Under the pieces are notes generated by a model. It did not search any database. It worked only from the letters and a program-made list of their open reading frames with translations, and was not told where the DNA came from. Below, piece by piece: positions 40,101-61,827 of a DNA stretch of 64,000 bases. Position numbers and translations under genes: made by a program. The DNA comes from Gavia stellata (taxonomy: Eukaryota; Chordata; Aves; Gaviiformes; Gaviidae), in the NCBI RefSeq assembly GCF_030936135.1, contig NC_082597.1, forward strand, positions 76,552,495-76,616,494, in the 5' to 3' direction. The first letter of the stretch is position 1, and every line of letters begins with the position of its first letter.

Positions 40101-40489
40101 TTGCCCTTGGGCGGTGGGTTGCCCTTGGGCAGTGGATCGCCAACCGAGTGTCATGGCGCGTTTTCTTGGTGGAAGCCCAGCCCCAGCCGGCGCTCCCCCA
40201 GCCGTTTGGGCCGGCAGAAAGGGGACTGAGCCACGAGCTGGTCAGCAACCACTGCGGGTGAAAAACATCCTCAGCAGGACGAAGCGATGACTGGCAGGGC
40301 TGACGGCGGTGTTTGCTGCTGGGCTCAGGATTGGACCATCCCAGGTGCTTGGTTTTAGTTGTGAGGGCCTGAACCTTGACTCTTCCCTCCTTTCCTTTCT
40401 AGCACATGTTGAAAGAAGATGAAATGTTTAAAGACTTTGCAACTCGCTCTCCTAGCACCAGTATAACAGATGAGGACTCCAACGTGTGA
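1023..40489 (+). CDS. PPFIBP1: PPFIBP1, liprin-beta-1 (27 exons, 5' end outside window)
   Basis: Liprin-beta-1 is a cytoplasmic scaffold that pairs with liprin-alpha and works at focal adhesions, the cell cortex and synaptic active zones. Twenty-seven exons join in one frame to 946 codons including the stop. Domains in order: coiled coil (residues ~1-268 of the visible part), Ser/Pro/basic linker (~269-570), SAM1 (~575-645), SAM2 (~654-725), SAM3 (~741-815), acidic tail ending ITDEDSNV. That C-terminus, VEKDRLDYED and LIQEINELRL match remembered human PPFIBP1 far better than PPFIBP2, whose tail and linker differ. All junctions are AG/GT and phases agree throughout. The human protein has about 1,011 residues, so roughly 85 N-terminal residues and the promoter lie to the left. 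Splice variation is visible: a 33-nt exon at 13,582, a 9-nt tandem donor at 15,781 and a 33-nt exon at 26,758. Identity is sure; use of the variable exons is inferred. Confidence 0.97.
2335..2448 (+). CDS. PPFIBP1: PPFIBP1 exon 2 of window (coiled coil)
   Basis: 38 codons, phase 0-0. It begins with VSVLTDQVEAQGEK and ends TEEMLQQ. The exon starts with the bases GTAAGT, which look like a donor directly after the acceptor GCAG, but the reading frame and homology need them as codons Val-Ser. Confidence 0.96.
2998..3129 (+). CDS. PPFIBP1: PPFIBP1 exon 3 of window (coiled coil)
   Basis: 44 codons, phase 0-0, from ELLSRTSLETQKLDLMAE to RFRDTE, donor GTGAGT. The stretch VEKDRLDYED is typical of beta-1 and absent from beta-2. 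Confidence 0.97.
3130..9551 (+). other. PPFIBP1 large intron (6.4 kb)
   Basis: No exon is needed here: the flanking exons join RDTE to DLIQEINE as in human. It holds a run of about 23 T at 3,202-3,224, an A/T-rich stretch near 5,090-5,700 and another T-rich tract near 8,460-8,500. The long minus-strand frame at 4,380-4,928 resembles no protein I know. No transposon was recognised. Confidence 0.7.
9552..9644 (+). CDS. PPFIBP1: PPFIBP1 exon 4 of window (coiled coil)
   Basis: 31 codons, phase 0-0, from DLIQEINELRLRVGEMD to KKLKTTK, with the heptad pattern of a coiled coil. Acceptor CTCACTCAG, donor GTAAGT. Confidence 0.97.
10139..10231 (+). CDS. PPFIBP1: PPFIBP1 exon 5 of window (coiled coil)
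   Basis: 31 codons, phase 0-0. SLMAKLSSMKIKVGQMQYEK is as in human, but the last five residues read SQMLK where I recall WESLK in human. The donor is weak (AAG|GTGTAG), so this junction may be spliced less efficiently than its neighbours. Confidence 0.94.
10232..11925 (+). other. PPFIBP1 intron (1.7 kb)
   Basis: Single-copy-looking intron DNA between two coiled-coil exons. No exon or repeat was recognised. The minus-strand frame at 10,620-10,826 has no recognisable similarity. Confidence 0.7.
11926..12040 (+). CDS. PPFIBP1: PPFIBP1 exon 6 of window (coiled coil)
   Basis: 115 nt, phase 0 to 1. Encodes DELAALKDKLEQKEAEVKRL and ends GEGVEILDR plus one base. Donor GTAAGA. It can join exon 7, or skip it to exon 8, without changing frame. 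Confidence 0.96.
12041..13581 (+). other. PPFIBP1 intron (1.5 kb)
   Basis: Intron before the 33-nt exon. It contains a T run near 12,971-12,988. Nothing else was recognised. Confidence 0.65.
13582..13614 (+). CDS. PPFIBP1: PPFIBP1 exon 7 of window, 33-nt cassette
   Basis: 33 nt, phase 1-1, encodes D-ENCKKKLKDK with its flanks. It matches the optional human segment DENFKKKLKEK, so it is very probably a cassette exon adding 11 basic residues within the coiled coil. Acceptor CCTGCACAG, donor GTAAGG. Confidence 0.9.
13615..14930 (+). other. PPFIBP1 intron (1.3 kb)
   Basis: A/T-rich intron DNA. The overlapping frames near 14,452-14,715 are on opposite strands and neither resembles a known protein. 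No repeat was recognised. Confidence 0.65.
14931..14992 (+). CDS. PPFIBP1: PPFIBP1 exon 8 of window (coiled coil)
   Basis: 62 nt, phase 1 to 0, encoding NIEVQKMKKAVESLMAANEE plus K. The acceptor is T-rich (GTGTTTTTAG); the donor GTAGCG is weak. Confidence 0.95.
15705..15780 (+). CDS. PPFIBP1: PPFIBP1 exon 9 of window (end of coiled coil, two donors)
   Basis: 76 nt to the first donor, phase 0 to 1, encoding DRKIEELRQSLNRYKKVQDM through ILAQ. A second in-frame donor (AAAG|GTATTG) 9 nt on, after 15,789, would add three residues and give AQGKKGK. The same AQGK / AQGKKGK alternative is known for human PPFIBP1, so the tandem donor is probably used. Confidence 0.95.
15781..18727 (+). other. PPFIBP1 intron (2.9 kb)
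   Basis: The first nine bases are part of the alternative donor. The rest holds overlapping short frames on both strands at 16,118-16,627 and 17,194-17,784, none resembling a known protein. No transposon was recognised. Confidence 0.65.
18728..18885 (+). CDS. PPFIBP1: PPFIBP1 exon 10 of window (linker)
   Basis: 158 nt, phase 1 to 0. It starts GKESDSEDFLNSGSVST, acidic and Ser-rich, and contains EKSPSPTPV, which is conserved in human beta-1 and offers proline-directed phosphorylation sites. Confidence 0.95.
18886..19832 (+). other. PPFIBP1 intron (0.9 kb)
   Basis: A/T-rich intron DNA; no exon or repeat was recognised. It ends with the T-rich acceptor CTCTTTTTAG. Confidence 0.65.
19833..19963 (+). 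CDS. PPFIBP1: PPFIBP1 exon 11 of window (linker)
   Basis: 131 nt, phase 0 to 2. Encodes HTSILQISIPSF, matching human TTILQVSIPSL, then a Ser-rich and Lys-rich stretch (SSTSKSSETVAEKMK). The linker is less conserved than the coiled coil and SAM parts. Donor GTATTA. Confidence 0.93.
19964..21484 (+). other. PPFIBP1 intron (1.5 kb)
   Basis: Contains overlapping frames on both strands at 20,446-20,962, a sign of locally higher GC rather than of genes. No repeat was recognised. Confidence 0.65.
21485..21538 (+). CDS. PPFIBP1: PPFIBP1 exon 12 of window (linker)
   Basis: 54 nt, phase 2-2. Encodes EGRSTGSSPETQLCDSP; the TQLCD core matches human VDTQLCDK. Strong donor GTAAGT. Confidence 0.92.
21539..22697 (+). 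other. PPFIBP1 intron (1.2 kb)
   Basis: A/T-rich intron DNA with no recognised exon or repeat. Confidence 0.65.
22698..22758 (+). CDS. PPFIBP1: PPFIBP1 exon 13 of window (linker)
   Basis: 61 nt, phase 2 to 0, encoding TSSLQKSSSLSSLRKETSEA. Matches human TSSLQKSSSLGNLKKETSD. It has a basophilic-kinase look (KSSSLSSLRK). Confidence 0.95.
22759..23853 (+). other. PPFIBP1 intron (1.1 kb)
   Basis: Contains a T run at about 22,970-22,984. No exon or transposon was recognised. Confidence 0.65.
23854..23883 (+). CDS. PPFIBP1: PPFIBP1 exon 14 of window, 30-nt micro-exon
   Basis: 30 nt, phase 0-0, encoding DRDSAQKPTE. It stands where human has EKETIQKTSE and is bounded by a good acceptor (CTTTCTCACCAG) and donor (GTAACG). 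Because it is in frame it could be skipped without harm to the rest. Confidence 0.85.
23884..25081 (+). other. PPFIBP1 intron (1.2 kb)
   Basis: Starts with a short GT/CG-rich stretch at about 23,888-23,913. The 146-codon frame at 24,632-25,072 resembles no known protein. Confidence 0.65.
25082..25253 (+). CDS. PPFIBP1: PPFIBP1 exon 15 of window (basic linker)
   Basis: 172 nt, phase 0 to 1. Contains SFGTRKARSSFGRGFFKIK, almost as in human, then NKRTASAPNL. The RTASAP hexamer fits a 14-3-3 mode-1-like site (R-S/T-x-S-x-P). Confidence 0.97.
25254..26757 (+). other. PPFIBP1 intron (1.5 kb)
   Basis: Intron leading to the alternative 33-nt exon. No repeat was recognised. Its 3' end is C/T- and GT-rich (26,690-26,750) before the acceptor ATCTGAAG. 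Confidence 0.65.
26758..26790 (+). CDS. PPFIBP1: PPFIBP1 exon 16 of window, 33-nt cassette with RSASAP
   Basis: 33 nt, phase 1-1, encoding DRSRSASAPTL with its flanks. It matches the optional human segment DRKRSASAPTL. Its end is a near copy of the end of the previous exon (TASAPNL and SASAPTL). RSASAP fits the 14-3-3 mode-1 consensus RSxSxP exactly. The acceptor has a poor pyrimidine tract, as expected for a regulated exon. Confidence 0.9.
   Translation: MAVEVQVHLL
26791..29100 (+). other. PPFIBP1 intron (2.3 kb)
   Basis: Contains a 246-codon frame (27,330-28,067) without recognisable domains, discussed as a finding. No transposon was recognised. It ends with the acceptor TTTCTAATAG. Confidence 0.65.
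29101..29242 (+). CDS. PPFIBP1: PPFIBP1 exon 17 of window (linker)
   Basis: 142 nt, phase 1 to 2. Encodes ETEKGSADHLDLAG and PPSPDSKKKARGIKKLFGK; the latter is nearly identical to human. The basic patch before the SAM domains is conserved in liprins. Confidence 0.97.
29518..29646 (+). CDS. PPFIBP1: PPFIBP1 exon 18 of window (linker before SAM1)
   Basis: 129 nt, phase 2-2. Encodes RSQSTTFNPDDM and RGGTRATAGPRLGWSRDLGQ, a block strongly conserved between liprin-beta-1 proteins. Donor GTAAGA. Confidence 0.97.
29647..30323 (+). other. PPFIBP1 intron (0.7 kb)
   Basis: Contains an exon-like S/P-rich open stretch at about 30,080-30,175 whose phase does not fit its neighbours. No repeat was recognised. 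Confidence 0.6.
30324..30474 (+). CDS. PPFIBP1: PPFIBP1 exon 19 of window (SAM1, first part)
   Basis: 151 nt, phase 2 to 0. Begins SAM domain 1 with MPFAKWTKEQVCNWLQDQGL and ends QQDLEK. The Trp-x6-Trp spacing and the helix pattern are those of liprin SAM domains. Confidence 0.97.
30475..31438 (+). other. PPFIBP1 intron (1.0 kb)
   Basis: A/T-rich intron splitting SAM1. No exon or repeat was recognised. Confidence 0.65.
31439..31550 (+). CDS. PPFIBP1: PPFIBP1 exon 20 of window (SAM1 end, SAM2 start)
   Basis: 112 nt, phase 0 to 1. Encodes ELGIKHPLHRKKLQLALQAL, the last helix of SAM1, then HGKLDYHWVT at the start of SAM2. Confidence 0.98.
31697..31785 (+). CDS. PPFIBP1: PPFIBP1 exon 21 of window (SAM2)
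   Basis: 89 nt, phase 1 to 0. Encodes WLDDIGLPQYKTQFDEGKVD, the core of SAM2. It ends HYMSI where human has HYMTV. Confidence 0.97.
31786..36274 (+). other. PPFIBP1 large intron (4.5 kb)
   Basis: Splits SAM2. A GC-rich stretch at about 32,040-32,520 carries open frames on both strands, and a 168-codon minus-strand frame lies at 34,714-35,217; none resembles a known protein. No CR1 or other transposon was recognised. Confidence 0.65.
36275..36397 (+). CDS. PPFIBP1: PPFIBP1 exon 22 of window (SAM2 end)
   Basis: 41 codons, phase 0-0. Encodes DDLLSLKVVSVLHHLSIKRA and ends NCLRRRPSDE. Virtually unchanged from human. Confidence 0.98.
36398..37225 (+). other. PPFIBP1 intron (0.8 kb)
   Basis: Pyrimidine-rich in its first 250 bases. 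No exon or repeat was recognised. Confidence 0.65.
37226..37351 (+). CDS. PPFIBP1: PPFIBP1 exon 23 of window (SAM3, first part)
   Basis: 42 codons, phase 0-0. Encodes TNHRVMEWLRSVDLAEYAPN, then RGSGVHGGLM, the most conserved liprin SAM segment. Confidence 0.98.
37352..38208 (+). other. PPFIBP1 intron (0.9 kb)
   Basis: Intron within SAM3; no exon or repeat was recognised. The acceptor is GTGATTAATAG, with a short pyrimidine tract. Confidence 0.65.
38209..38397 (+). CDS. PPFIBP1: PPFIBP1 exon 24 of window (SAM3 end)
   Basis: 63 codons, phase 0-0. Encodes VLEPRFNVETMAQLLNIPPN and the last SAM3 helix (RRHLATHFNLLIG), then YVLLTATAKVK. Confidence 0.98.
38398..38955 (+). other. PPFIBP1 intron (0.6 kb)
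   Basis: No exon or repeat was recognised. The acceptor CACTTGTAAG is unusual in being short of pyrimidines just before the AG. Confidence 0.65.
38956..39135 (+). CDS. PPFIBP1: PPFIBP1 exon 25 of window (tail)
   Basis: 60 codons, phase 0-0. Encodes PKKLAFSNFGSLRKKKQ, YVCPMELGRASGSGSKKGF and an acidic DDDDLDRLEQ. Matches human beta-1. Confidence 0.97.
39493..39558 (+). CDS. PPFIBP1: PPFIBP1 exon 26 of window (tail)
   Basis: 22 codons, phase 0-0, encoding MEDSEGTVRQIGAFSEGINN plus LT. Conserved in beta-1 and not found in beta-2, which ends earlier and differently. Confidence 0.97.
39636..39696 (+). repeat. Intronic hairpin, 21-bp arms
   Basis: Arms at 39,636-39,656 and 39,676-39,696 around a 19-base A/T-only-but-one loop. 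They are reverse complements at 20 of 21 positions. The odd pair becomes G-U in the + strand transcript, so the RNA stem would be unbroken. The length suits a small-RNA precursor or the remains of a palindromic DNA element. Neither is proven. Confidence 0.85.
40098..40130. repeat. Two-copy 18-bp tandem repeat
   Basis: The 15-mer GGGTTGCCCTTGGGC occurs at 40,098-40,112 and 40,116-40,130, with a period of 18 bases, in a GC-rich intron stretch. Confidence 0.8.
40403..40489 (+). CDS. PPFIBP1: PPFIBP1 exon 27 of window, last coding exon
   Basis: 28 codons plus TGA at 40,487-40,489. Encodes MLKEDEMFKDFATRSPS and ends ITDEDSNV, the C-terminus of human liprin-beta-1. Acceptor CCTTTCTAG. Confidence 0.98.
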   Translation, partial: HMLKEDEMFKDFATRSPSTSITDEDSNV

Positions 40490-41518
40490 CAGTAACCACC
40501 AGGCACTGACAAAGGCTCACTTCCCTGTGTGCAAGAAACGTCATCATTATACATGACGGGCAGCAGATTGTGTACATTACATTGCTCTTGCTTCTGTTTG
40601 TTAGAAGTAATATTGGGGGGTGGAGAATTTGAAAAAAAAAAAGGAGAATAAAAAAGGTGCCTGCTCTAAAGTTGCCATAAGAAACACCCAGACACTGGTG
40701 AATGGTAATTGTTTTTACTATATTTAATGTACAAACCGGTGATATGTTTCAGAGTGTTGCATTTAAATTTACGTGGTATCATAGCACTCCTTCTGCTTAT
40801 TCACAGACTCAGATAATCCTTTATTCTGTTTCAAAATAACAGAAGATGTTAGATAGAAGTATTGCATCTGTAGATATTGTGCATCAGCTTTCTCTAGGCT
40901 CTCAATTGAAAAAAAGGTATTACTGCTCTTTTTCAAGTGCATTTGCTCAGTACAAATACCAGGTCTGCCCTTCCTATAGTATCCAATGTAGGATTTTAGT
41001 CATCCATGCCTTGCATAAACTCCCCCCGTAGCTCTGGACTGTTGCTCTTATTTTTATACTGTTTTATAAAAAAAAAAAGGAAAAAAGAAGTATATGAAGT
41101 ACATATAAAAGCAAAAATTTAAATTTTGTGAGATAGAGTGATGACAAGTTCGAGGTGTGGGGGAAGGGGAGAGGGTTGTAAAAAGATTATGCCAGTTTGC
41201 ATACCAGCTGGTTACTGGAAAAGGCAGGCTGACCTTTGGAACTGTTTGCTTTCCTTGCTTTTTACTAAGTGCACGGTTTAATGATCTTCCATTTGGGATG
41301 AAACAATTATAAAGTATGTTTCGTCTAGCAGTGACTCTTATGGAAACGGCATGTTTTCAAACGTCTTCTTTCTTGTTCCCAGCAGCAGTCGTTACAGCGT
41401 TCAAACAAGGTTAACACTTCTGTGACTTAAAAATTTCCTTGAAGTTGAGAGTACTCCCTGCGTATGGAAGGGATATTTCTGTGCTGTGACTAACGTAAAG
41501 ATGGTGGAGTTGCAAAAA

Positions 41519-41524
41519 AATAAA
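41519..41524 (+). terminator. Candidate proximal poly(A) signal, PPFIBP1
   Basis: AATAAA about 1 kb after the stop, within an A-rich stretch. It may give a shorter 3'UTR than the distal signal. Confidence 0.5.
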
Positions 41525-43082
41525 GTTATATAGAGAAATGTATAGGAAATATATTATTTCATATTAAACCTAGGGTGGGACTTTTCCTCAAAAATTCAAA
41601 TATCAAACATGTTGCTCATTGTTTTACCTTCTTAAATCACAGCTCCTCTGCTTTTGAAGGTCATCAGATTTTAAAAATCCTAACTAGCCAGTGGAAATCT
41701 TTTGTCAGCCTTTCGGTATTGCGAGGTGTCCTAGCCAAAAGCAAATGAAAAAAAGTAACTCTGTTTATCACAGTGGTCATTCATATGGTGTTGAATGTTG
41801 CATGTATTTTAGCACAATGGTATGAAGCTTCTTTGCTTTGTAAAGGCAAAAAAAGTACAGCTGGAATTGTTCCTTGCGGCGGCGTGTTGCTTTTTCGAGC
41901 GTTGTCACTCGTTTCATTACTCTCCTTGCTGGAAGTGAGACCGTTTCCGACACACTGCCAGTGTGGTGCAAGGGCTATTAGATTTGTGCTGACTTTGTGG
42001 GTATTTCTGAAACACTATTAACAAAGGTAGGAGAGGAAGAAAGGTTCTTCTAGGGGCTTCCAGGGAGCTCCCGTCAGATGTTGGGGTAGATTGGAGAAAT
42101 ATTCTAGAATTATATTATTGTAACCTGATAAGCTACGACCAGCCTGGTTCTTTGAAGGCTGTGCAGTGTAGGCTATTATTTATGTACCAAGATGAAAAAT
42201 TTTATGTGGCCTGGTTGTGTTATACATAATATCGAGTGCTGCCATTTTCTCTTTAATATATGGAGCCAGGCAAACAATCCATAATCCTGACGTAAAATTG
42301 TTTGTGCTGCTTATGTTTGTCTACAAACAAATCACAACTGATGCTTTATTCAGAATTCCTGACTTAAGTAATGTCCGCAACTAATTTGCCGTCTTTTGTT
42401 TCTTCCTCTGCAGTCTTGGGGTTGTTGGAGCTATTTTATTCGGGCAGAAATACCACATTGTGTAACATCTGCTATCGGCTTTAGGGTGCAAATGCTTGGG
42501 AGGTGAATTCAGGGCTCGCCTTCTGTGAGTACTTCGCAGTATGGTTATTATTTTACATGGAAGTTGGACTTAAGACATTGCTCTCCCAAATGCTGCAGAA
42601 GTACTGGGAAAATGTGGTGCAGGCTCCTGAGCAAAAGCATTCCTTGAGATTCACGGTCGCTAGACACCGGCTAGTGAATGTAATGACTGGATATTCACAG
42701 GGGAAAAAAAAGGGGGGGGGGCTAGTGACACATTATTCTGTGCTGAAATAGGCAGAAACAAATGCTCTCCATTTTCTCTTCAAGTCCAGTGCTATTAGCA
42801 AGCATATCAGCAACGGCAGATGATGGTTTATTTTAAGTCCAGTGTAAATAGCATTTTCTCCAAAACAGCCCTTTCCCTGCATTTACAGGTTGGAAACCAG
42901 GTCGTCCCTTCAAAGCTGCTGTCATCTGAACCTTGGTTATTTTGTGAGGGTGGAATATGAAAGCAAGTGATAAAATCGGGAAGTTTATGTGTGCATGTGC
43001 ACAGCTGATACTGTTAGAGTATTTTAATTTGTGCGTGTTTGAAGAGGGCAACATAACTACTGTGTATTGCCATGATAAATCC

Positions 43083-43088
43083 AATAAA
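43083..43088 (+). terminator. Candidate distal poly(A) signal, PPFIBP1
   Basis: AATAAA followed within 25 bases by a GT-rich element, the usual layout of a vertebrate cleavage site. Best candidate for the end of the longest PPFIBP1 mRNA. Confidence 0.55.
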
Positions 43089-43105
43089 GTCTGTGGAAAA
43101 TGCCA

Positions 43106-45489: not shown

Positions 45490-46212
45490 ATGGGCCAGAA
45501 GGTCTCACATGAGGACAACCAGGAGAACACACCTGAAACTCTGTTCATCTGTGAAGTCTTCAGCCAAGGTGTGGTCCATGCATCTCAAAGGCTCAAGGAC
45601 TATCTTGGTTTTGTAGATCCTCAGAGCAAGTTCCAGCCAGCCACAAACACACTGAGCGAGATCTTTTTGGTCAACTTCATCAGCTTCTGCATGGAAAAGG
45701 GAGTGGAGGAACGTATCACAACCAGCAAAATGACCAGGCAGCAGTCCTCCCTGTTCGGGGTGGACTGGATCTGGACTCTGTCTGGAGCTGACAAGCAAAT
45801 CAAACTTCAGATTGCCGTGCAGGCTTTACAGCTGGCCGAGCTTTTCTGTCGCGAAGGTGGCCCTGCTGAGGTGGTGGAGGACTGCTGCCGGGAAGCCATG
45901 CTGACAGACGAGTGCTTCCAAAACAGGAGTAGGTTTGAGAAGCTGGCGGAGTTCTGCCGCTTGGTGGGATGGGACTGCCTGGGCTTGTTCGTCGTGTTTG
46001 GTGTGCCAGGGAAGCCCAAAGACATCCGAGGAGTCATGCTAGACAGCATTGCCAAGGAGGAGCAAAAATGTTGCCTGTCGGGCAGGAATGTGCTACTGCA
46101 ATTTGTCACCAGTACTGACAGCTTCCTGCCCACAGAAGACATGTTGGAATACTGCCTCTGCACCAAAAATGGACCAAAGGAGGTGGGCAATGTGTACATA
46201 AACTTCCTGTAA
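45490..46212 (+). CDS. REP15: REP15, Rab15 effector protein (single exon)
   Basis: REP15 binds Rab15-GTP and acts in return of transferrin receptor from the endocytic recycling compartment. The frame gives 240 residues against about 236 in human. Matching blocks: QRLKDYLGF (~35), ANTLSEIFLVNFISFC (~51), the GVDWIWT block (~89), DKQIKLQIAVQALQL, GLFVVFGVPGKPKDIRGVML and the end EVGNVYINFL. The ATG at 45,490 has a good context (A at -3, G at +4) and yields MGQKVS, as in human MGQ; an in-frame ATG at 45,460 has a poor context and would hide Gly2. Gly2 with Ser6 fits the N-myristoylation pattern MGxxxS. It follows PPFIBP1 on the same strand, as on human 12p11. It has no coding intron, as in human. 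Confidence 0.94.
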   Translation: MGQKVSHEDNQENTPETLFICEVFSQGVVHASQRLKDYLGFVDPQSKFQPATNTLSEIFLVNFISFCMEKGVEERITTSKMTRQQSSLFGVDWIWTLSGADKQIKLQIAVQALQLAELFCREGGPAEVVEDCCREAMLTDECFQNRSRFEKLAEFCRLVGWDCLGLFVVFGVPGKPKDIRGVMLDSIAKEEQKCCLSGRNVLLQFVTSTDSFLPTEDMLEYCLCTKNGPKEVGNVYINFL

Positions 46213-46602
46213 ACTGCTGGTTAACAGCAGTGGCTCTGCACACCAGCACCAGAGGCGGCGTGGGACTCAGCTCTGCCGCTCTCGCTTTTCTTCTCGCACG
46301 CTATTCCCTCCACCCCCTTATTTCCCACCGTCTCCTCCGCCCATCGCATTCCCTTACCTCCTGCAGAAGCCAGGCTGAGTCAGTCACTCCAGGTTTTAAA
46401 CAACAGGATGTACCTGCCAGAAAAATGTGTTTATAGAAGGCACGTCATTTTTCCAGAACATTTTGTTCGCCAGACATTAAGTCTTGGCTGGAGCCAATGA
46501 AAGCTTTAGCGCCCTGAGCCTTTGGGAGGTCGTGGTAGACTTGACTCACAGCCTTTGTTTACTGTGTGGCAGGTTTTTTCTGTAATAGGAGGTTGAGGCT
46601 GT

Positions 46603-46608
46603 AATAAA
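46603..46608 (+). terminator. REP15 poly(A) signal
   Basis: AATAAA about 390 bases after the REP15 stop, the first such signal downstream on this strand. Confidence 0.65.
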
Positions 46609-46629
46609 GAAAAAACGTACTGGTGCTGG

Positions 46630-48970: not shown

Positions 48971-48988
48971 TTATATAAAATCCCTCTA

Positions 48989-48994
48989 TTTATT
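48989..48994 (-). terminator. Candidate poly(A) signal, CYB5R gene (distal)
   Basis: TTTATT on the + strand, which is AATAAA on the minus strand, 2.2 kb after the CYB5R stop. Confidence 0.4.
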
Positions 48995-49288
48995 AAAAGA
49001 GCCTCATGTTCACAAGAAAGATGTACAAAATAAAGGTAAAAGAGGAGATTGGAGTGATAGGGAGAAAAACAGAGACAGTTTACTCCTTGACTCGGCATCC
49101 AAATACAGCAGTTTTCACCAAACTCAAACAAAAGAAAGAGATAAGCACTTGGGTAAACAAATCTAACAGGCTTTCTTTTTTTTTTTTGAACCTTCACTTT
49201 TATAGAGTGTTTTACAGTTATAGTTTCTCTCTTACAAGGTTGAAAATGGTGTGCTCAGTAACACCCAGGTGATTCACCTGCAAGATAC

Positions 49289-49294
49289 TTTATT
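49289..49294 (-). terminator. Candidate poly(A) signal, CYB5R gene
   Basis: AATAAA on the minus strand about 1.9 kb after the stop. Nearer to the stop there is only an ATTAAA-like site (about 51,098-51,103). Which one is used cannot be told from sequence. Confidence 0.45.
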
Positions 49295-51215: not shown

Positions 51216-51388
51216 TTAGAAGGAGAACCTCATGTCCTTGGTGTAGCCCAGTTTGTCCAGGTTGGGAATGCAAGCATACTGGATCATTGGAGGAGGTCCA
51301 CACATGAGGATCAGAACATCATTTTGAGGTGGGGGCAGGTGGTCTCTGATCATCTCTTGGTTCACAAATCCTTGGCTGTAATCCCAAT
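51216..51388 (-). CDS. CYB5R3: CYB5R last coding exon
   Basis: 173 nt, entering in phase 1 (two bases complete the Asn codon), TAA at 51,216-51,218. Encodes [20 protein letters not shown], then the NADH-binding [10 protein letters not shown]. Confidence 0.96.
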
Positions 51389-54300
51389 CTGTTAAAAAAA
51401 TGAAAGTAGGGGAAGGGGAATGAGGGGAAAAGGAGGAAAAGATAGATAGAAGTCACTTTAGAATGAAGTGTGAGGGTTTGGGTTTTTTCAGTAACATTCT
51501 GGACTGTAGCATTTGTACACTCCACTCGCATTAGTGTCCTCAACAGTTATGCTACATGGAAAAACTGCCACCTCTGCTTTTAAGATGCAAAACTGATGCA
51601 TGGAGAAAACAAGGGCTAACTTTTAATAGAGCTTGCTAAAAGCCCCAAGGAAATCTCAAGCAGAGCTGTGAACAGAATGTGAATCTTCTCAGCTCCAGCA
51701 CTGTGAAATAACAACATCCATCCTTGTTACCCCACTGTTTACAAGTTCACTAGGGGAAATCTAGCTGATGAAGTTCCCAGTTGGAACGCTCACGGTGCTA
51801 ATCAGTTAATACTAGGATTCAGGTTTACCCATCGCATTCCCAGCCCTGGATGCAAAAAGCTGCCGACCCAAACCTTTGGGCACAGTAAGACTGACACATT
51901 TTTCTCCCACAGATTATCCAAAAATTTCCAGTTTTGGTCCAGTTTCACGTATGGTAGTGCAAGTCTGCAAAACAGTGTTGAGGGGGTCTAAGGAGGAACT
52001 TTTATCGCAACTGCAAAGATCAGTTCACAATTCACAAATATCAAAGAAAAGGAACAGTGATTAGAAATTCCAGGAGAACACTCATTGCAGAAGATGACAC
52101 AACAGCAACAGCCTGTGGGGAGGGCAAGGCCCTTCCCCCCACCCTACCAGAGGTGTATTCTTGGTCACAAAGTAAGAGAAGGCACATGGCTTTTCCTTCT
52201 CTGCCCCAAACTACCACTGAATAGGAGTGTGAATTTATTCTGATGTGGGTGGGCATGACGAGGAATGGTAAGAAGGGAAAAACGACAAGGAATGACATGG
52301 AAACAATTGAGCCTTTTCACAACAGCAGTAAATATTTAGCCTTTTCTTCCTCAAACTTGCATAGCTAAGGGAGGCACATTCAGCTAGCTCATCCTCTCGC
52401 CGAGACAAGCCAACTATATCACATTATCTTTAAAACTGGACTGCACCAAGCTGGAACAGTATTTTCATTGAGAAGCACTGTTAATAACAAAAGGAATTCC
52501 ACTGCCTAGGAAGAAGATCAGCTACCATGAACTGCCATACAGTGACAGCTAGGTAGGAGCCTGCACTAGGTCGCATCTCCGTGAGATACAGTGCCTCTGA
52601 CACTCACACTGCAGCTGCCTTAATGCATGCTCTGAACATGAGACAGTAAGATAATAGGCTATATTTATGTCTGCGGGGAAGGAAAAGGAAGGTCACCTTC
52701 CAGAGTAAATAATACTAAACACTCAGGTGTAGTCATGGGAGGAACACTGCACTACCATTCACCTGAGGTGAGCTTTGTAGCTTTGGAAACACTGCCTGAT
52801 TACATCTAAGAGTTTCTGTGCATCACCATGTGAAGAATGATGCTACTGGATGCATTCAGACACGATTCATTAAGCAAAAAAGGAGCTCAGAAATATGCAC
52901 ATGACATAGCACAGCTCCTGTCAAACACATGCATTAATACTCATAACTTAAGCTTCAGTGGAAGTAGCATGTTAGATCTTACTTTCAGGTGCTCTGTCCA
53001 GTGTGTACCAACACTTAAAGCGACCGGGATTCTGAACCTGGATCTCCTCTAGCTCAGAACGTAACAGGATATCCTTCTCGGTCTGCGGGATAAGGAAAAC
53101 AATGATTATGCTCAGCCCTCAGATGACCACAAAGCATCGGCTACTCTACAGCCCTGTGAGGTGGAACAGATTATTCAACTCCGTTTTACAGTCTGAAGAG
53201 AGCAAACACAAGTTATTTCCATGACTATCCTGTGGCAGAGGAAATAAAAAGGTTCATAACTTTCCCAAATCCTGACCATGCAATGTCTTCCCTCTAAAAA
53301 ATGAAACAAAGCAAAACCTGTATCAAACACAGTACCTTCATTTGTTCAGGGAGTAAGTGGTAGCATCAGAAGAGTAAAGCCCTCTTTTAGCACTCCTGTT
53401 ACAAAAGCAACTTTCATCAAAAAACTAACCATGACTGCATACAAGTATCTCCCTACCACTCCATACTGTGCCGTTCAGTCAGGAAAATGCCAGGTTTTTC
53501 ACCTTTGCCACTTCAAATTTCATCAGCACTGCCATACGGAGATGGTTTGTTTTTTAAACAGGATGTGGAACAAATAACCAAAAGGGTATCAAGTTCTGAT
53601 TGGAACAACAAATGTTACCCAGGGTATCAAGTTCTGCTCCTCCCTGATGCAACATCATTGAAGGCCAAAAGAAAGCCTTATTCCCGTAACAGCAGCTGCA
53701 GTTTGGGAAGGAGGGAAAAGGGTAGAGACTAAAAGAGGTACCATCCTCTGCAGCCTTAATAATTTGGCACTGAGGACACCACTATGTCTGTAACTGTGGG
53801 GGTGAGGAGGAATGTGCCAGCAACTATTGCTGAGAAGGTGCCTATTTCTGGATCTGCAGTTGCACGTGTTCCAGAAAAGCTATTACTGGGTCTGACCAAC
53901 TCAAAGCATGCTAGTCGGAAGCACAGTACGAGCCCACATACATTGTCGTCTGTAACCCAACACAGTTCTTCCACGTGGGTCAAAATAAAAGATCAGCACA
54001 GCACACTTTAAAAAAATATTTTAAAATATTAAATATTAAAAAACATCTAGTCTGCACGCTTTCCTGACTGACCATTTGTCACGAGGCTGCTTTATATTTG
54101 TGCAGTTACTGGGTACAAGGACTCTTTAAAGCCAAGGATTGATGTTTACACAGGCTGTTACTAATACGCAGGCAACTGTTCAGGAGTCCTTCCTGCAAGA
54201 AGCAGTAGGTTTTCTGGGTTGCTAAAGAGCTCTAGCCCTGTATTAATCATTCTGAATTACTCATAGCAAATCCTGGCCCTCCTGCCCTGATACGGACTGC

Positions 54301-57300
54301 ACTTTATGCCAACTCCTAGGGCTCAGCAGAGACCAGCTGCTGCAGCCTCACCAGCCAGCACCAGAGGGCACCGGCAGAGCTCCTAAAGAGGTATTACTGT
54401 AATAAAGCCTCAGAACCGGGCATCTGTTGGCACTTGGATCATAGCTTCTGGGCAGAAAAATCTTAAGTTTATAATTCAGATATGGTACAAAGGAAATGAG
54501 GACACACTGAATATCAGAGGAGAGAGGAATGCCAGAGGAGAGCCTACGGAAGCTAAAAAACACAGGCATGAAGTGATGTTCACCACAAATAATGGCTCAT
54601 AATCTAGAAACAAATATTCATTATGACAGAGAAATTTAAAAGCAAAAGGATTAATACCAGAATAAGATCAGGCAAAGAAGGGGTGTTGCAGTTCAGCAGC
54701 ACACCACCATTTGGATTGCCTGGTCATCCAAGAAATCTCTATTGCAAGGATTCCATGGATGAAAGAGATCTTCCCTTTGTCCAACACAGCAGTGTAACAC
54801 ACCTCAAAGAGCAAGAGAAACACATGAAGAACTGACAGAGGGAATGGAAATGGAAGGAGACAGTCATGCAGAATCACAGCTCCATAGTTGAGGGACCTGC
54901 TGGAGGCCACTGTTAATTTTAGCCTCACCTAAGGTGTTCTCAAGCAGAAAGATTCCACATACAAACCCTGCTGCAAAGTTGGGGAGTTACAATTGCTGAA
55001 GGAGACAAATGTCCACCTCTTTCATGCTTCCACTAAGAAAGACAGCTCTGAAAGTCTGCCCAAACTGTTAACAACTTCCACAAAGGAATGCAGAGTTTTA
55101 AAACATTTATAAACCGGATTAGAACAGAGCAAAAAGACACAGGGAAGCAAGCATTAGCTGGAAGGAAAGCGGCATTTCTGTAGTAACACTAAAAACCCAA
55201 TTCATTATAGTGCTTTTATACGGGAGGTTTTCAACATTTCAGTTCACTTCTCCCCTCAGGGTTTGTATTTCTGTACTAGGCTTTCTCAGCAAGAATTTCA
55301 TTTGCTGAGTGGAGTTCTGTTAGTTAAGTAAAACTTTATAAACAGAAAAAAAGACAGAATTACCTGATTAGCAAACAGCAGCTGACAAATGGTAGGGTCA
55401 TCTTTATCTTTTATGATTGCTCGAATGATCTGCAGCATAGGTGTTATCCCTGAAAAAGAGAGGCAGGTCAATGATGGGAGAATGCAATGGAGCAAAAGAA
55501 AATGCAAATGAGCACATGAGAGAAAATATGAACAAATAAATCTACCAGCTGTCAGAAACCAAGGATGAATCTTTATATATACGTACCAGTCCCACCTGCA
55601 ATCATCCCCACATATTTCACTGTCTTAGTAACTGGTTCAGCTTTCTTTTCAGGCCGAATGGCAAACTTGCCTGAAGAGAGAGAGAGAGACAGAGAGAGAG
55701 ATTGAAAACCATCGAATAAAGCAGGAAACAACACCTGTGATCCCTTCCCAGCACCTTCAGCTGATTGACTTTGTCTCAGCCCTGTCACCCTTCCCCCTCC
55801 GTAAAGCAGAAGGAGGAAACAGACAAAGGTGAAGATGTCACAAATTAAAACAAATCCTGAAAGATGATTAGAGATTGTAAGATACACAATAACATCAGAC
55901 ACTGACAGGGGTTATTACTTACTCCTGACTACAGCATCAAGCCATCACTACCTGTTTTTCTATTTGCTCACATCCCATACCCCCAGTGATATTCAGAAGC
56001 CCAGATTCTGGAAACAGTTCTACACAAAGGAATTAATCTGCTCAGAGAGTTTATTTACCCTATGCAGATTACTTTAAGGGAAAACCTGAAATATGCAGGA
56101 TGTATGTTTTTGTATATTTGCCTCTTCTTTTTGAGCTGATTTGTCAGTTTCAGCCAAATCTGACTCGAATCAAACTCTTGAAATTGCCCCAAATGTTCTA
56201 TTTGTTGTATTCACACCTCTCTTCATCCAGGATAACACAAACAAAACATACAAAGCTCTGGAAAACCACATGTCTGAGTTCTGCTGCTCACAAAACCACC
56301 AGAAGGTTTTTGTGACACATTTGTGGCTGCACTATGCCAAAGTGAGATATTTTATATTGGCATAAAAGTACTTCCTACTGATGAAGTTCATTTTCACTAG
56401 GGAAATTAGCACTGGACAGCACAAATACCAAGTGTTTTTATCAGTGTATAAACTATGTCCATATGAGCAGGGAGAGAGTTCCCTTCTTTGAGAATATTAT
56501 CAGTAACAAGCAGTTCTATAGTCATATAACCATCCCCCTCAGGATGGCCGTTAACTTAATTAAGACACTAGCAATTTCTTTTTGTGCAGAGATGCTAACA
56601 ACAGAAAAGAAACCCTGTGTCTAGTGTGAGAGGGTGAGTATATTGAGAGTACCAGCCTGAATAATAAATAGAGGTGATAGCTAAGGTTCAGTTCATGCAC
56701 TACGTGTAATCAAAATGTAGCCACAGAGATTCTAACCCTCTACTCTGCTCTGGTGAGACCCCACCTGGAGTACTGCATCCAGCTCTGGAGTCCTGAGCAC
56801 AGAGGAGACATGGACCTGTTGGAGCAGATCCAGAGGAGGGCCACAAAAATGATCATAGAATGGTTTGGGCTGGAAGGCACCTTAAAGATCATCTAGTTCC
56901 AACCCCCCTGACATGGGCAGGGACACCTTCCACTAGACCAGGTTGCTCAAAGCCCCGTCCAACCTGGCCTTGAACACTTCCAGGGTTGGGGCATCCACAA
57001 CTTCTCTGGGCAATTTGTTCCAGTGCCTCACCACCCTCATGGTGAAGAATTTCTTCTGAATATCTAAGGAAGGATATATTCCTTACATCAGAGGGATCGA
57101 ACACCTCTCCTATGAGGAAAGGCTGAAAGAGTTGGGGTTGTTCAGCCTGGAGAAGAGAAGGCTCCAGGGAGATCTTATTGTGGCCTTTCAAGTACTTAAA
57201 GGGGGCTTATAAGAAAGATGGGGACAAACTTTTTAGCAGGGCCTGCTGCAATAGGACAAGGGGTAGAAGTTTTAAACTAAATGAGGGTAGATTTAGACTA

Positions 57301-60300
57301 GATATAAGGAAGACATTTTTTACAATGAGGGTGGTGAAAGACTGGAACAGGTTGCCCAGAGAGATGGTAGATGCCCCATCCCTGGAAACATTCAAGGTCA
57401 GGTCGGACAGGGCTCTGAGCAACCTGATCTAGTTGAAGATGTCCCTGTTCACTGGAGGGGTGTTGGACTAAATGACCTTTAAAGGTCCCTTCCAATCCAA
57501 ACCATTCTATGATTTTATAAAGACTTGAACCCAGCTGGAAAAAAATGTGACCAGTATTGCTACTACATTATATTGTTTTTTCTGTATTGTTTACTCTGGA
57601 TAAATTATATCTTCCGAGTCAGCCTTGCCTTTTCCTTTGTAGACAAGTAGGCCACTTGGTCCTCTGAAGTCAATAGTATCCCCTATTTTCAGGCTGTCTA
57701 AGTACTGAGACATCTTCCCTCCATCAGGAAACTTCGGATGGACACTTTTAAAGTAGATCTGTTAAAAATAATGATGAAGTAATTAATCTCATACCTCAAA
57801 GATGAGCATTTGCCCTTCAATATTTAGGTACCCATACTCCTCATGCAAAGAACACAATTACTACATAACAAAATACTATCAATGCAGATTTGACTGACAA
57901 TAAAAGAGAAGCACCGAGTTTTCTGAAAAAGATTAAAATGCCACTCTTGCCTCAATTTTGATCAGACTGGACACAGACTGGCAACTTCTCCATTGTATTT
58001 CTGGAACATAGAAAATATCTCTAAATAATCAATATGATTCACACCCAAGTTCAAAAGGGAAAAAAAAAAAAGGAAAAAAAAAAGCCACTGGGATTTCAAA
58101 CAGAAAAAATTCTGAGAAAGATCCCTGACAACTCAGTTGCAAAGGGATATACCCAAACCTTCTTGGGATGCCAACTATTTGCACCTCAAAGTTAGAGTAA
58201 CAAAAAGAGTGGATACCAACTTACTGAATATTCAGCCATTCATCAACAGGTATCAGTGGGTGTAGTTATGTTGCTGGAACTGTCCTGGGTTTTTTTTATT
58301 TTAAATCACATGGTTGGGAAAAGAATTCAAGCTGAGACTAGCTACACTTTTACAAGAACAGCATCATTTACATGCATGGAGAGCCACACTGGGAAGAAGT
58401 AGTCTTGTGAAAAATTTCTATCTGAGTCAAAGGTTTACATTTTCCCTTGTCATGTCTTCAGTGTGCAACACCATGCTCATGAAGATAAGCAGATAGTAAA
58501 AGGCAAATACACACTTAGTTTCACAATAAATAAAGTGTTATTAGTTGTAAAGAAGAAAAAAACTTAAATAAGAGTAGAATTCTGAGAGGAAATCCAGAGC
58601 AGATATTCAGGTTTTAAATTCCTGTCAGCTTTAAATATATTTGCTTAGTCTAGTTACCAAGAGCCAAAACAAAAGTACATTATCAAAAGGCTCAAAATCA
58701 CATTCTTGCCAATTACATCAGTCATTCACATTGTCTGGATCAGTAACAATAATGATCGCTGCTCTTAATGATCATAATGATGATATTCATTAGCTTCAGA
58801 AGAAGCTGACAGTTCAGGCAAGGTTAATTCCTTATTTCAGAAAGATTAAAAAAGTGTGTGAACATCTGCAACTCTACACAGATTTTGGAAAACTGCAGTA
58901 TGCAAATTATGCAGCATCTCATGAGACACACTCACGACAGAAGTGCTTGCAAAATGCCATATGGATTGTAGGTAATTGCAGATCCCTTGTTGCAATAGTG
59001 GAATTCCGCAGCCACATATACCTGAACCGCAGCCAGCACATCAGACTTCACATAGCACTGCAAGTGTAAAGGTGGGCTCTGAAGTTTCCCAGCCTGGTAA
59101 AAGAGCGTGACATTCTCACCTTGACAACAAGATCCACAAAGCCCTTGTCATCATCACTGGAAACTGGAGTGTAAGGTCTAACAACTAGAGCTCCATCAAT
59201 CCGTGCAGACAGGTAGATATGCTGTCCTGTATGCAGGGAAGAAAAAAAGCAGTTTGCTTTCAAAAGATTTTTCTTTCAGTGGATGTACTGAGTTGGCATG
59301 GACTGCAAACACAGTCTCAAAGCTCTCCTAACTACCTTGTTTTGGGAAAAAACTTTTTCCTCTCTCTTTTTCCTGACATTGTAGCACCTTGCCAGAGTTG
59401 TTAACCATGCACAGATTCCACCTGGAACAGCAGACAACTCTGCTGCTAACTTTATGTGTCAATCATATCTGTTCTGATATCTTCATACATTTACATTTAC
59501 CAAAGCCCTAACTGTACGTGAGATCTTGCTAAAGATGTGATATGTGTCTCCCATACACACAAGTAAAAAGGACACAGGAGGGGAAAACTGTCAAGTGCTG
59601 TTCACACTTCTTTATTAACATGTTAGTTATAAACTGTTACAGTTTAGTTACAACTGAGTTTATATCTGTTCCTACTTTGACCACCAATTGCTCATGTCTA
59701 CCAGGAGGTCTTCTAGCTGCCATTGCTAAGGCTGCCCAGACATAAAGCACACTTCTAACCCTGCTATTCCTCCAGCTTAACATTTGAATGTAACGATCAC
59801 ATTTCAATCTGTCACACATTCACTGAACTCTCTACAATAGTTTCTTTTCTCAGTGTTCACGTTTTTGATGAAAAAAAACTAGAATTAACTCCTTCGAAAG
59901 GTTCTCCTATAAAATTCCAACACCCTGAAGAGACCCAAGTGAAGAATATCTAGGGGGAGATTTGTTTTTTGTTATTTTATCACCACTAGGTCAACAGAAC
60001 ATTCATCTCAGGATGAATGCAGCTCTCCAAAGATGGTGCAGCTCCTCTGCCTGTTATGGGAACACAAAGGGGGGGATTTTACCAGGAGCTGGTTTGCCAA
60101 GCTGGAGGGCCAGTGAGGCAAACCAGTGGGTGAATGAAGATGTGCTACCTGGTGACTCGGGAAATGAGCAACCATAACTCACTTGAAGCTGTACACGGAC
60201 ATAACGTAAGGGTGATTCAAATAACCCTCTCAGCAAAGCCTATACACATCTTGTAGCACATATGTTTCCTGCTAGGGAAGACCTGAAGGGAGCTGCAGCA

Positions 60301-61827
60301 GCAGCCTCCCCTTCCTCCTCCAGGCAAGGGATGGCCTCACCACCCCCTCCTCCAGGAACAGACCGATGGTGACCACGGCAGACTGTGAACCTGGACAGAT
60401 GGGACCGCTGTTGGGGCATGTCTCACAAGAACTGGTACAAATCCAAAAAAGGTGCTCCTCCCAAAGGGAAAACAAGCCTTATGCTCTTACTTGTTAGAGC
60501 TTTACCCCACCCTGATAGGACAGCAGCTGTCAGCCTCTGCGTGGGGCCATACCCAATCCCGCTCTCCCTCAGAGTGAAATCATGTTTTTTCCTGTAACAC
60601 TCCAGCTGGTGGTAAAAGCTAAATGCTGGTGCTGGACTAAACATGCAGAGTGCATGCCACAGCTGCCAAGCCTGCTGCTCCCAGCTGCCAAGCCTGCTGC
60701 TCCCAGCTGCTTTTACCACCAGCTTTCAGCTCTCTTTGCTTCCCAAGTCTTGCCCAGTAAACCACTACCTCAGTTACCCAAAGGTTAGCCCATGCAGAGC
60801 ACCTTCAGGAGCATGACTATGCTGCTCCCGGGACCGTGCAAGGCTAGGTACGCGCCTTCTCGGGCTACGCTGAAACAACTGGCTGATTTGTCCTGACCTT
60901 ACAAAAACATTGGAGGAAGCCGTGGCATCCAGCAGGCCAAATTCACCCCAGACCGCTTCCTTGCTGTTAACAGGTAGGACAAGAACAATTACAGAGGTGA
61001 GACAGCCCACTCCTCGTTGTTCATTATGGGCAAGGGAGAGAAACTAGCTTTGCCCTCATGGCTACTTAACAGGATCAAGAGAATAATGTATCCCAAACAA
61101 GACGGAACCTAAACACAATGGACTGTAATGCTAGAAAGGTGCTGAGGACTACCACGAAGCACCTGATCCACAGATCACTGCAACAGGTTGTTAAAGCAGA
61201 AATCCCTATTAAACACAAGTCACAATTAAATGCTCTTTATATAAGCAGTAGGAAACAATAGCACTAAGCTATTATGGAAGGCAACATGCCATATGGCAAG
61301 GCCTAAGGAAACATCTACCCCATGGTGATTAAGAAGTTCCATGAGACTGACTGCAAATTCAGAAGTGAGCACATCATCTGGTAAACCACATGTATTAGAG
61401 GAGAAGTAGCTGAGAGAGCTGCCTCGGGGGATGGAAAGGGACCACAGAGACCAAGCACCACAGGAACACACACTGGAAAGTTGAAATTGGAAAAATACAA
61501 GTGAAGACCATGTTTGTTTCTACTGTCTTCACAGAAACAAGCTGGATGTACACCCTCTGTAAGTACACGAGATTTCAGACCCTGCAGATGACTCACAGCA
61601 TGAGGATAATCTTGCAAAGCTCTAAATACCAGCTCAAGCCATGTGGATAGTATTCAAAATTCGAAGTTCAAAATGTAGGAAAAAAATCCCCACAAAATCT
61701 CTTATACTATAATTAACAACACTTGGATTCTCAGTAAGGAAAGACAGAACATACCTATAGGGAGACCCAGAACGTGATCTATGGAAGGGAGAGCAAATCG
61801 AAATCTTCTTGTGTCATGACTAACTTC
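51216..61827 (-). CDS. CYB5R3: NADH-cytochrome b5 reductase, CYB5R3-like (7 exons, 5' end outside window)
   Basis: A flavoenzyme that passes electrons from NADH through FAD to cytochrome b5, for fatty-acid desaturation, sterol synthesis and methaemoglobin reduction. Seven exons join in phase to 250 residues plus stop; human CYB5R3 has 301, so about 50 N-terminal residues, including any membrane anchor, lie to the right. Motifs: RPYTPVS (FAD site), GGKMSQYL (flavin phosphate), GGTGITPML and CGPPPM (NADH site). [12 protein letters not shown] and [10 protein letters not shown] are CYB5R3-like, whereas the end [14 protein letters not shown] is closer to the CYB5R1/R2 ending. Family is sure; exact orthology is open because the gene sits beside PPFIBP1, not in the setting of human CYB5R3. 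One intron has a GC donor. Confidence 0.93.
51389..52982 (-). other. CYB5R intron (1.6 kb)
   Basis: Intron bounded by donor GTAAGA and acceptor TTTTTTTAACAG. No exon or repeat was recognised. Confidence 0.65.
52983..53082 (-). CDS. CYB5R3: CYB5R exon TEKDILL
   Basis: 100 nt, phase 0 to 1. Encodes [20 protein letters not shown] and WYTLDRAPE; human CYB5R3 has [14 protein letters not shown] and WYTLDRAPE. Confidence 0.96.
53083..55363 (-). other. CYB5R intron (2.3 kb)
   Basis: Contains a 15-base direct repeat at 53,584-53,636. No transposon was recognised. Confidence 0.65.
53584..53636. repeat. 15-bp direct repeat, two copies
   Basis: GGGTATCAAGTTCTG occurs at 53,584-53,598 and again at 53,622-53,636, 38 bases apart. 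Confidence 0.8.
55364..55449 (-). CDS. CYB5R3: CYB5R exon ITPML
   Basis: 86 nt, phase 1 to 0. Encodes [20 protein letters not shown] and ends LLFANQ. Completes the GGTGITPML nucleotide-binding loop across the splice. Confidence 0.96.
55587..55670 (-). CDS. CYB5R3: CYB5R exon [10 protein letters not shown]
   Basis: 84 nt, phase 1-1. Encodes [20 protein letters not shown] and VGMIAGGTG. Its acceptor pyrimidine tract is a CT repeat. Confidence 0.96.
55674..55702 (-). repeat. CT/GA microsatellite in splice acceptor
   Basis: A GA repeat with one interruption on the + strand; on the minus strand it reads (CT)n right up to TTCAG and is the polypyrimidine tract of the next exon. Confidence 0.85.
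56852..57086 (-). mobile_element. CR1 LINE, minus strand, nested in older CR1
   Basis: On the + strand it begins with the reversed CR1 tail CATAGAATGGTTTGGGCTGG, running through CAACCTGGCCTTGAACACTT to about 57,086 where it is 5'-truncated. ATCA flanks it at both ends (56,852-56,855 and 57,087-57,090), consistent with a short target duplication. About 235 bases. Confidence 0.92.
57178..57432 (+). pseudogene. CR1 ORF2 C-terminal remnant
   Basis: An uninterrupted 84-codon frame. It encodes the end of the CR1 reverse-transcriptase polyprotein: the YLKGAY block, [19 protein letters not shown] and [14 protein letters not shown]. Nothing upstream allows translation of a whole ORF2; it is a dead fragment. 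Confidence 0.88.
57629..57758 (-). CDS. CYB5R3: CYB5R exon [10 protein letters not shown]
   Basis: 130 nt, phase 0 to 1. Encodes [20 protein letters not shown] and [13 protein letters not shown]. The flavin-binding GGKMS is here. Its donor must be GC: GGAAAAG|GCAAGG; no GT nearby keeps the frame. Confidence 0.95.
57759..59119 (-). other. CYB5R intron (1.4 kb)
   Basis: A/T-rich; contains an A-rich tract at about 58,060-58,083. No transposon or exon was recognised. Confidence 0.65.
59120..59226 (-). CDS. CYB5R3: CYB5R exon [12 protein letters not shown] (FAD site)
   Basis: 107 nt, phase 1 to 0. Encodes [20 protein letters not shown], then [21 protein letters not shown] is the FAD-binding R-x-Y-S/T-x-x-S motif. 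Donor GTGAGA. Confidence 0.97.
59227..61754 (-). other. CYB5R intron (2.5 kb)
   Basis: Contains the tandem and inverted repeats at 60,604-60,724. No exon or transposon was recognised. Confidence 0.65.
60604..60724. repeat. Inverted repeat enclosing 22-bp tandem copies
   Basis: AGCTGGTGGTAAAAGC at 60,604-60,619 and its exact reverse complement at 60,709-60,724 enclose two and a third copies of CAGCTGCCAAGCCTGCTGCT (period 22, about 60,659-60,710). Confidence 0.88.
61755..61827 (-). CDS. CYB5R3: CYB5R first exon seen ([11 protein letters not shown])
   Basis: 73 nt, phase 0 to 1. Encodes [20 protein letters not shown], then GLPIG. The acceptor CCTCTTTCAG shows that another exon lies upstream, beyond the right edge. 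Confidence 0.96.

What the first reader, a model, noticed from the sequence alone, without database searches (positions are those of the whole stretch)
40403..61827. CYB5R3-like reductase gene beside PPFIBP1-REP15: a paired ancestral block
Seen: PPFIBP1, REP15 and a CYB5R3-like gene lie in 64 kb. Known human map: PPFIBP1 and REP15 on 12p11, PPFIBP2 next to CYB5R2 on 11p15.4, CYB5R3 on 22q13; OVCH1/FAR2 (12p11) and OVCH2/FAR1 (11p15) are further pairs of the same two blocks. Inference: the liprin-beta to CYB5R linkage predates the vertebrate genome duplications. Either CYB5R3 moved away in mammals, or this is another CYB5R ohnolog that mammals lost. The second case would be a gene missing from human-centred lists.
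Basis: partly seen in the sequence, partly recalled or inferred. Interest (0 to 1): 0.7.

Follow-up and report, generated by a model that had tools for sequence, protein, structure and literature searches.

The report
CYB5R3 gene beside PPFIBP1 and REP15
This stretch of what looks like a bird chromosome carries the ordinary CYB5R3 enzyme gene next to two genes that in humans sit on another chromosome, which most likely marks where an old chromosome block was later broken in mammals rather than a lost gene.

Summary
PPFIBP1 (+; last coding match 40403-40486), REP15 (+; 45490-46212) and seven 3' coding exons of a CYB5R gene (-; 61827 down to 51216) lie in the window, REP15 and CYB5R tail to tail. 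The CYB5R exons join into 250 aa without stop or gap. The protein is 77-78% identical to human and pig CYB5R3, 68% to CYB5R1, 64% to CYB5R2; trees joining it to R1 or R2 have AU p 0.043 and 0.017. In chicken, the chromosome 1 interval given for PPFIBP1 ends 240 kb before TSPO, then SCUBE1 and MPPED1, and a gene called CYB5R3 is on that chromosome (PMC12414907). Best reading: the CYB5R3 ortholog at the join of the human 12p11 and 22q13.2 blocks, not a lost ohnolog. CYB5R2 lies beside PPFIBP2 in cattle (PMC6375599), so the liprin-beta/CYB5R neighbourhood probably predates the vertebrate genome duplications. Not checked: a second CYB5R3 beside A4GALT, and any fish outgroup, since no vertebrate genome could be searched. 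Interesting synteny; ordinary gene.

The parts
1023..40486 (+). PPFIBP1 (liprin-beta-1), coding matches from human residue 91 to the C-terminus; earlier exons were not found in the window
   Evidence: tblastn with recalled human PPFIBP1, colinear exons; SAM region best hit liprin-beta-1 3tad_C, E 1.7e-52, next liprin-alpha-2 E 2.8e-12
40403..40486 (+). last coding stretch of PPFIBP1
   Evidence: 89% identity over 28 residues to the C-terminus
45490..46212 (+). REP15 (RAB15 effector protein), single exon, 240 aa plus stop
   Evidence: PF15208, E 9.5e-125, 1-240/240
61755..61827 (-). CYB5R3 exon, start of the FAD domain (73 nt)
59120..59226 (-). CYB5R3 exon with the RPYTPVSS stretch (107 nt)
57629..57758 (-). 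CYB5R3 exon with the GGKMSQYL stretch (130 nt); followed by a GC donor
   Evidence: sequence
55587..55670 (-). CYB5R3 exon with GMIAGGTG (84 nt)
55364..55449 (-). CYB5R3 exon, ITPMLQ...LLFANQ (86 nt)
52983..53082 (-). CYB5R3 exon (100 nt)
51216..51388 (-). CYB5R3 last coding exon with MCGPPPM and stop codon (173 nt)

Best explanation
The gene is the ortholog of CYB5R3 (NADH-cytochrome b5 reductase 3), an FAD enzyme that passes electrons from NADH to cytochrome b5. It sits at the join between the block that is 12p11 in humans (PPFIBP1-REP15) and the block that is 22q13.2 in humans (CYB5R3 to MPPED1). The most likely history: a liprin-beta gene and a CYB5R gene were neighbours before the two vertebrate genome duplications; one copy of the pair is PPFIBP2-CYB5R2, another is PPFIBP1-(REP15)-CYB5R3, and CYB5R1 (human 1q32, recalled) is a third copy without its liprin-beta. 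This lineage kept PPFIBP1 beside CYB5R3; on the mammal line a break between REP15 and CYB5R3 put CYB5R3 beside POLDIP3. Shown here: gene identity, order, orientation and reading frame. Taken from papers: the chicken and cattle positions. Recalled: the human positions. Inferred: the direction of change and the ohnolog relation.
For: PDB search: of 18 sequences matched, the top 11 (E 2e-133 or better) are animal cytochrome b5 reductases, 8 of them labelled reductase 3 and 3 labelled without a number (the human and rat enzyme, recalled); the next is a nitrate reductase at 3.4e-78. Identity 77.1% to human and 77.9% to pig CYB5R3 against 68.3% (R1) and 63.5% (R2) over 249 gap-free columns. Trees: with R3 AU p 0.973, with R1 0.0426, with R2 0.0174. 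Distance to R3 0.30-0.33 against 0.58-0.76 among the paralogs. Chicken chromosome 1 intervals, GRCg6a: KRAS 67.19, PPFIBP1 68.205-68.288, TSPO 68.529, SCUBE1 68.576-68.693, MPPED1 68.889 Mb, with CYB5R3 and ARFGAP3 named among chromosome 1 genes in LD blocks for the same trait (PMC12414907, passages). Cattle chromosome 15, 44.46-46.37 Mb, lists OVCH2, RF00026, CYB5R2, PPFIBP2, OLFML1, SYT9 in that order (PMC6375599). Cattle chromosome 5, 113.91-114.47 Mb, lists POLDIP3, CYB5R3, ARFGAP3, PACSIN2, A4GALT, and SLCO1C1 and PDE3A (12p genes, recalled) lie at 89.29-89.68 Mb of the same chromosome (PMC6842931). Turkey chromosome 5 holds ARNTL, OVCH2, PPFIBP2 (PMC8470100), and hens express a gene called CYB5R2 (PMC6839265).
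Against: At the 17 sites where human R1 and R2 agree and both R3 sequences share another letter, the window has the R3 state at 8 and the R1/R2 state at 5, three of the five in its last 13 residues. That fits retained old states, but would also fit an extra paralog that branched near R3. PMC12414907 gives no coordinate for CYB5R3, its intervals look like SNP ranges assigned to genes rather than gene borders, its LD-block genes span much of chromosome 1 (EPHA1 at 78 Mb), it does not mention REP15, and it spells the name 'cytochrome b5 reductase 1 (CYB5R3)'. The turkey list names OVCH2 and PPFIBP2 but no CYB5R gene, so CYB5R2 beside PPFIBP2 was not seen in a bird. No fish, amphibian or reptile gene order was seen. 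That A4GALT or ARFGAP3 follow beyond 64000 was not seen.
Confidence: 0.76

Rival explanations
1. The CYB5R gene is a further ohnolog, sister to CYB5R3, kept here and lost in mammals; a true CYB5R3 lies elsewhere in the same genome.
For: Five of 17 R1=R2 sites carry the R1/R2 state, three of them in the C-terminal 13 residues; a five-sequence tree cannot tell an ortholog from a sister ohnolog by shape; the own-genome check did not complete.
Against: Distance to mammal CYB5R3 is about half that between the paralogs; in chicken the PPFIBP1 interval lies 240 kb from TSPO, the order expected if the true CYB5R3 block begins there.
Confidence: 0.06
2. The gene is CYB5R3, but the PPFIBP1-CYB5R3 neighbourhood is a join made on the bird or reptile line; mammals keep the older order with POLDIP3.
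For: Both blocks lie on one chromosome in chicken and 12p and 22q13 genes share a chromosome in cattle, so a rearrangement within one chromosome on either line could have made or broken the join.
Against: A chance join would have set a CYB5R gene within two genes of a liprin-beta gene although another CYB5R gene already neighbours the other liprin-beta gene. Human PPFIBP2 and CYB5R2 are, as I recall, tail to tail as here; that orientation was not checked.
Confidence: 0.15
3. Lineage-specific duplicate of CYB5R2 (or CYB5R1) inserted beside PPFIBP1.
For: Family membership only; c-ELW does not exclude the R1 placement.
Against: AU p 0.0174 (R2) and 0.0426 (R1); the window shows 8 of 73 R2-only and 7 of 61 R1-only states against 20 of 51 R3-only states.
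Confidence: 0.03

Closest known systems
CYB5R3 (NADH-cytochrome b5 reductase 3), mammals
   Same: 77-78% identity over 249 residues without a gap, both Pfam domains, FAD and NADH stretches
   Different: Neighbours: REP15 and PPFIBP1 here; POLDIP3 in cattle. Three R1/R2-type letters in the last 13 residues.
PPFIBP2-CYB5R2 block (human 11p15.4, cattle chromosome 15)
   Same: A liprin-beta gene beside a CYB5R gene
   Different: No REP15 in the cattle list; the human enzyme CYB5R2 (recalled) is 63.5% identical to the window protein.
PLEKHA4/5/6/7 - PIK3C2 - SOX paralogon
   Same: A published duplicated block with Plekha7-Sox6, Plekha6-Sox13 and Plekha7/6/5-Pik3c2a/b/g pairs (PMC8983885, passages); that its human members sit on 11p15, 1q32 and 12p12, like CYB5R2, CYB5R1 and PPFIBP1, is recalled
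   Different: That paper's main text has 0 occurrences of CYB5R or PPFIBP; adding CYB5R1/2/3 to the block is my inference.

Membership tests
CYB5R3 | FAD_binding_6 and NAD_binding_1 domains | tested here: met
   Pfam E 7.3e-35 and 6.1e-36, 119.7 and 123.8 bits against cut-offs of 21.1 and 22
CYB5R3 | closest to CYB5R3 among R1, R2 and R3, by tree | tested here: met
   AU test, R1 and R2 placements rejected at 0.05; five sequences, R1 and R2 recalled; R4 and CYB5RL not in the tree
CYB5R3 | intact frame with catalytic motifs | tested here: met
   250 aa, no stop; [33 protein letters not shown] present; roles of the motifs recalled
CYB5R3 | N-terminal membrane-anchor exon | tested here: inconclusive
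   not convincingly found in 61828-64000; probably beyond the window
CYB5R3 | A4GALT/ARFGAP3 as next neighbours | not testable with these tools
   beyond the window; genome search not answered. Chicken intervals in PMC12414907 fit
CYB5R2 duplicate | groups with CYB5R2 | tested here: not met
   AU p 0.0174
lost sister ohnolog of CYB5R3 | a separate CYB5R3 in the same genome | not testable with these tools
PPFIBP1 | liprin-beta rather than liprin-alpha | tested here: met
   3tad_C liprin-beta-1 E 1.7e-52 against 2.8e-12 for liprin-alpha-2
PPFIBP1 | PPFIBP1 rather than PPFIBP2 | tested here: inconclusive
   no liprin-beta-2 is among the 24 PDB sequences listed and none was compared; the call rests on exon identities, mostly 79-100%, to recalled human PPFIBP1 and on REP15 next door

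The most novel reading that the evidence does not exclude
The gene is a fourth CYB5R ohnolog, sister to CYB5R3, still beside its original liprin-beta partner and lost from mammals, with the true CYB5R3 elsewhere in the same genome.
Probability: 0.06. Interest if true: 0.6.

Novelty: already known. Interest (0 to 1): 0.3.

Why it matters
The gene itself is a known enzyme under its known name. What is worth keeping is the position: it ties CYB5R3 to the liprin-beta block, predicts that CYB5R1, CYB5R2 and CYB5R3 arose in the vertebrate genome duplications along with the SOX5/6/13 and PIK3C2 block, and puts a mammal-line break point between REP15 and CYB5R3. Ten literature searches were answered, eight of them with a CYB5R term (the other two are 22 and 27). 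In their listings (titles, starts of abstracts) and in the passages I opened I saw no paper that states this; the library holds open-licence papers only, and I did not open every paper listed.

Tried and rejected
Lost ohnolog: disfavoured by distances and chicken gene order. CYB5R2 or CYB5R1 duplicate: rejected by AU test. Pseudogene: not supported, the frame is open over seven exons. Chance matches: rejected with decoys. RNA genes: none by ARAGORN (bacterial code) or Rfam at gathering scores. Relatives in viral contigs: none; in prokaryote genomes 27 pattern matches, none confirmed. NCBIfam gave 16 families, all 16 far below their cut-offs. A paper on bidirectional promoters concerned CYB5R4 and was not used. 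The mammalian karyotype paper gave 12q/22 associations and the Ambystoma paper a 7/12 association in the passages seen, not the 12p11-22q13.2 join. Two chicken papers cited for this region are not held. Mended on checking: chicken positions are now called intervals, not gene borders; the odds of the best explanation went from 0.85 to 0.76 because the rivals together left no room for more.
Full report
What is there. The window carries three protein genes. PPFIBP1 runs on the + strand to its last coding stretch at 40403-40486; colinear matches from human residue 91 to the C-terminus are found, and its SAM region matches solved liprin-beta-1 at E 1.7e-52 with liprin-alpha-2 next at 2.8e-12. PPFIBP2 was not compared; the choice of PPFIBP1 rests on the recalled human sequence. 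REP15 is a single open frame at 45490-46212 (+) covering the whole Rab15_effector model. The CYB5R gene is on the - strand, with seven coding exons at 61827-61755, 59226-59120, 57758-57629, 55670-55587, 55449-55364, 53082-52983 and 51388-51216. Seven of seven acceptors are AG, five of six donors GT and one GC; the joined frame is 753 nt, 250 residues plus stop. The first 51 residues were not convincingly found in the last 2.2 kb. REP15 and the CYB5R gene point at each other.

Chance. The seven CYB5R3 exon matches, E 4.8e-9 to 1e-24, stand against a best of 0.16 for that query and 0.007 to 0.16 for the four queries over 21 decoys.

Which CYB5R. Of 18 PDB sequences matched at E 1e-10 or better, the top 11 are cytochrome b5 reductases at E 2e-133 or better, 8 labelled reductase 3 and 3 without a number; the next is a nitrate reductase at 3.4e-78. 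Over 249 gap-free columns the window protein is 192 of 249 identical to human CYB5R3, 194 to pig CYB5R3, 170 to human CYB5R1 and 158 to human CYB5R2; the three human paralogs are 59.8 to 65.5% identical to each other. It has the R3 state at 20 of 51 R3-only sites, the R1 state at 7 of 61 R1-only sites and the R2 state at 8 of 73 R2-only sites. Against this, at the 17 sites where R1 and R2 agree and both R3 sequences share another letter it has the R3 state at 8 and the R1/R2 state at 5, three of these in the last 13 residues. Sites that would group it with R1 alone or R2 alone number 2 and 3. LG+G4 trees: grouping with R3 has AU p 0.973 and RELL support 0.962, with R1 AU 0.0426, with R2 0.0174; the c-ELW test keeps the R1 placement in its 95% set. 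Distances are 0.33 and 0.30 to human and pig R3, 0.50 to R1, 0.67 to R2, and 0.58 to 0.76 among the paralogs. Five sequences cannot separate a CYB5R3 ortholog from a sister ohnolog by shape alone; the short distance speaks for the ortholog. The human R1 and R2 sequences are recalled.

Where CYB5R3 sits elsewhere. Passages of a chicken association study on GRCg6a (PMC12414907) give chromosome 1 intervals for PPFIBP1 (68.205-68.288 Mb), TSPO (68.529), SCUBE1 (68.576-68.693) and MPPED1 (68.889). These look like SNP ranges assigned to genes, not gene borders. The paper names CYB5R3 and ARFGAP3 among chromosome 1 genes in LD blocks for the same trait, without coordinates; that gene list also reaches EPHA1 at 78 Mb. 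TSPO, SCUBE1 and MPPED1 are human 22q13 genes near CYB5R3 (recalled). So in chicken the 22q13 block begins within about 240 kb of PPFIBP1, where the window shows CYB5R3. In cattle CYB5R3 lies with POLDIP3, ARFGAP3, PACSIN2 and A4GALT at 113.91-114.47 Mb of chromosome 5, which also carries SLCO1C1 and PDE3A (12p genes, recalled) at 89.29-89.68 Mb (PMC6842931). If the human orientation is as I recall, the break in mammals lies on the 3' side of CYB5R3, the side that faces REP15 here.

Direction of change. Cattle chromosome 15, 44.46-46.37 Mb, lists OVCH2, RF00026, CYB5R2, PPFIBP2, OLFML1, SYT9 in that order (PMC6375599), and the human 11p15.4 locus of PPFIBP2 holds CYB5R2 and OVCH2 (PMC4633711). 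Turkey chromosome 5 has ARNTL, OVCH2 and PPFIBP2, with no CYB5R gene named (PMC8470100); hens express a gene called CYB5R2, whose place was not seen (PMC6839265). A liprin-beta gene beside a CYB5R gene in both blocks is best explained by descent from one pair before the genome duplications. A rough estimate, from five CYB5R genes among some 20,000 (recalled figures) and four places within two genes of PPFIBP1, puts a chance repeat at about one in a thousand. The published paralogon of PLEKHA4/5/6/7 with PIK3C2 and SOX genes (PMC8983885) would hold CYB5R1 (1q32), CYB5R2 (11p15) and CYB5R3 as a further set; that paper's main text does not mention CYB5R or PPFIBP, and the human map positions are recalled.

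What was not done. No vertebrate collection is on hand; scans of viral contigs and prokaryote genomes gave no relative. The species is not known; CR1-like repeats in an intron (by eye) and the fit to the chicken gene order suggest a bird, which is an inference.

Papers. The papers cited were seen as passages found by search terms and, in listings, title and start of abstract; none was read whole.

Verdict. Observation confirmed. The gene is an ordinary CYB5R3; its place is a useful marker of an old vertebrate gene pair.

Noticed in passing
57629/57628: The CYB5R3 intron after the exon ending at 57629 has a GC donor (AAG|GCAAGG) with a normal AG acceptor just before 55670.
   Followed up: partly
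56850-57530: CR1-like retroelement fragments in the same intron, in both orientations (identified by eye from recalled CR1 features; a Pfam scan of the frame 57127-57432 gave no match).
   Followed up: partly
60660-60710: A 22-base tandem repeat, 2.3 copies with 100% matches, in a CYB5R3 intron.
   Followed up: no
40094-40135: An 18-base tandem repeat, 2.3 copies, some 270 bases upstream of the last PPFIBP1 coding stretch.
   Followed up: no
36275-36397: One PPFIBP1 exon is 100% identical in protein to recalled human PPFIBP1 over 41 residues, the highest of the stretches listed (next 93.5%).
   Followed up: no
45490-46212: REP15 lies between the liprin-beta and CYB5R genes here, but no REP15 is named in the cattle PPFIBP2-CYB5R2 list; it may have been gained or lost after duplication.
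   Followed up: no
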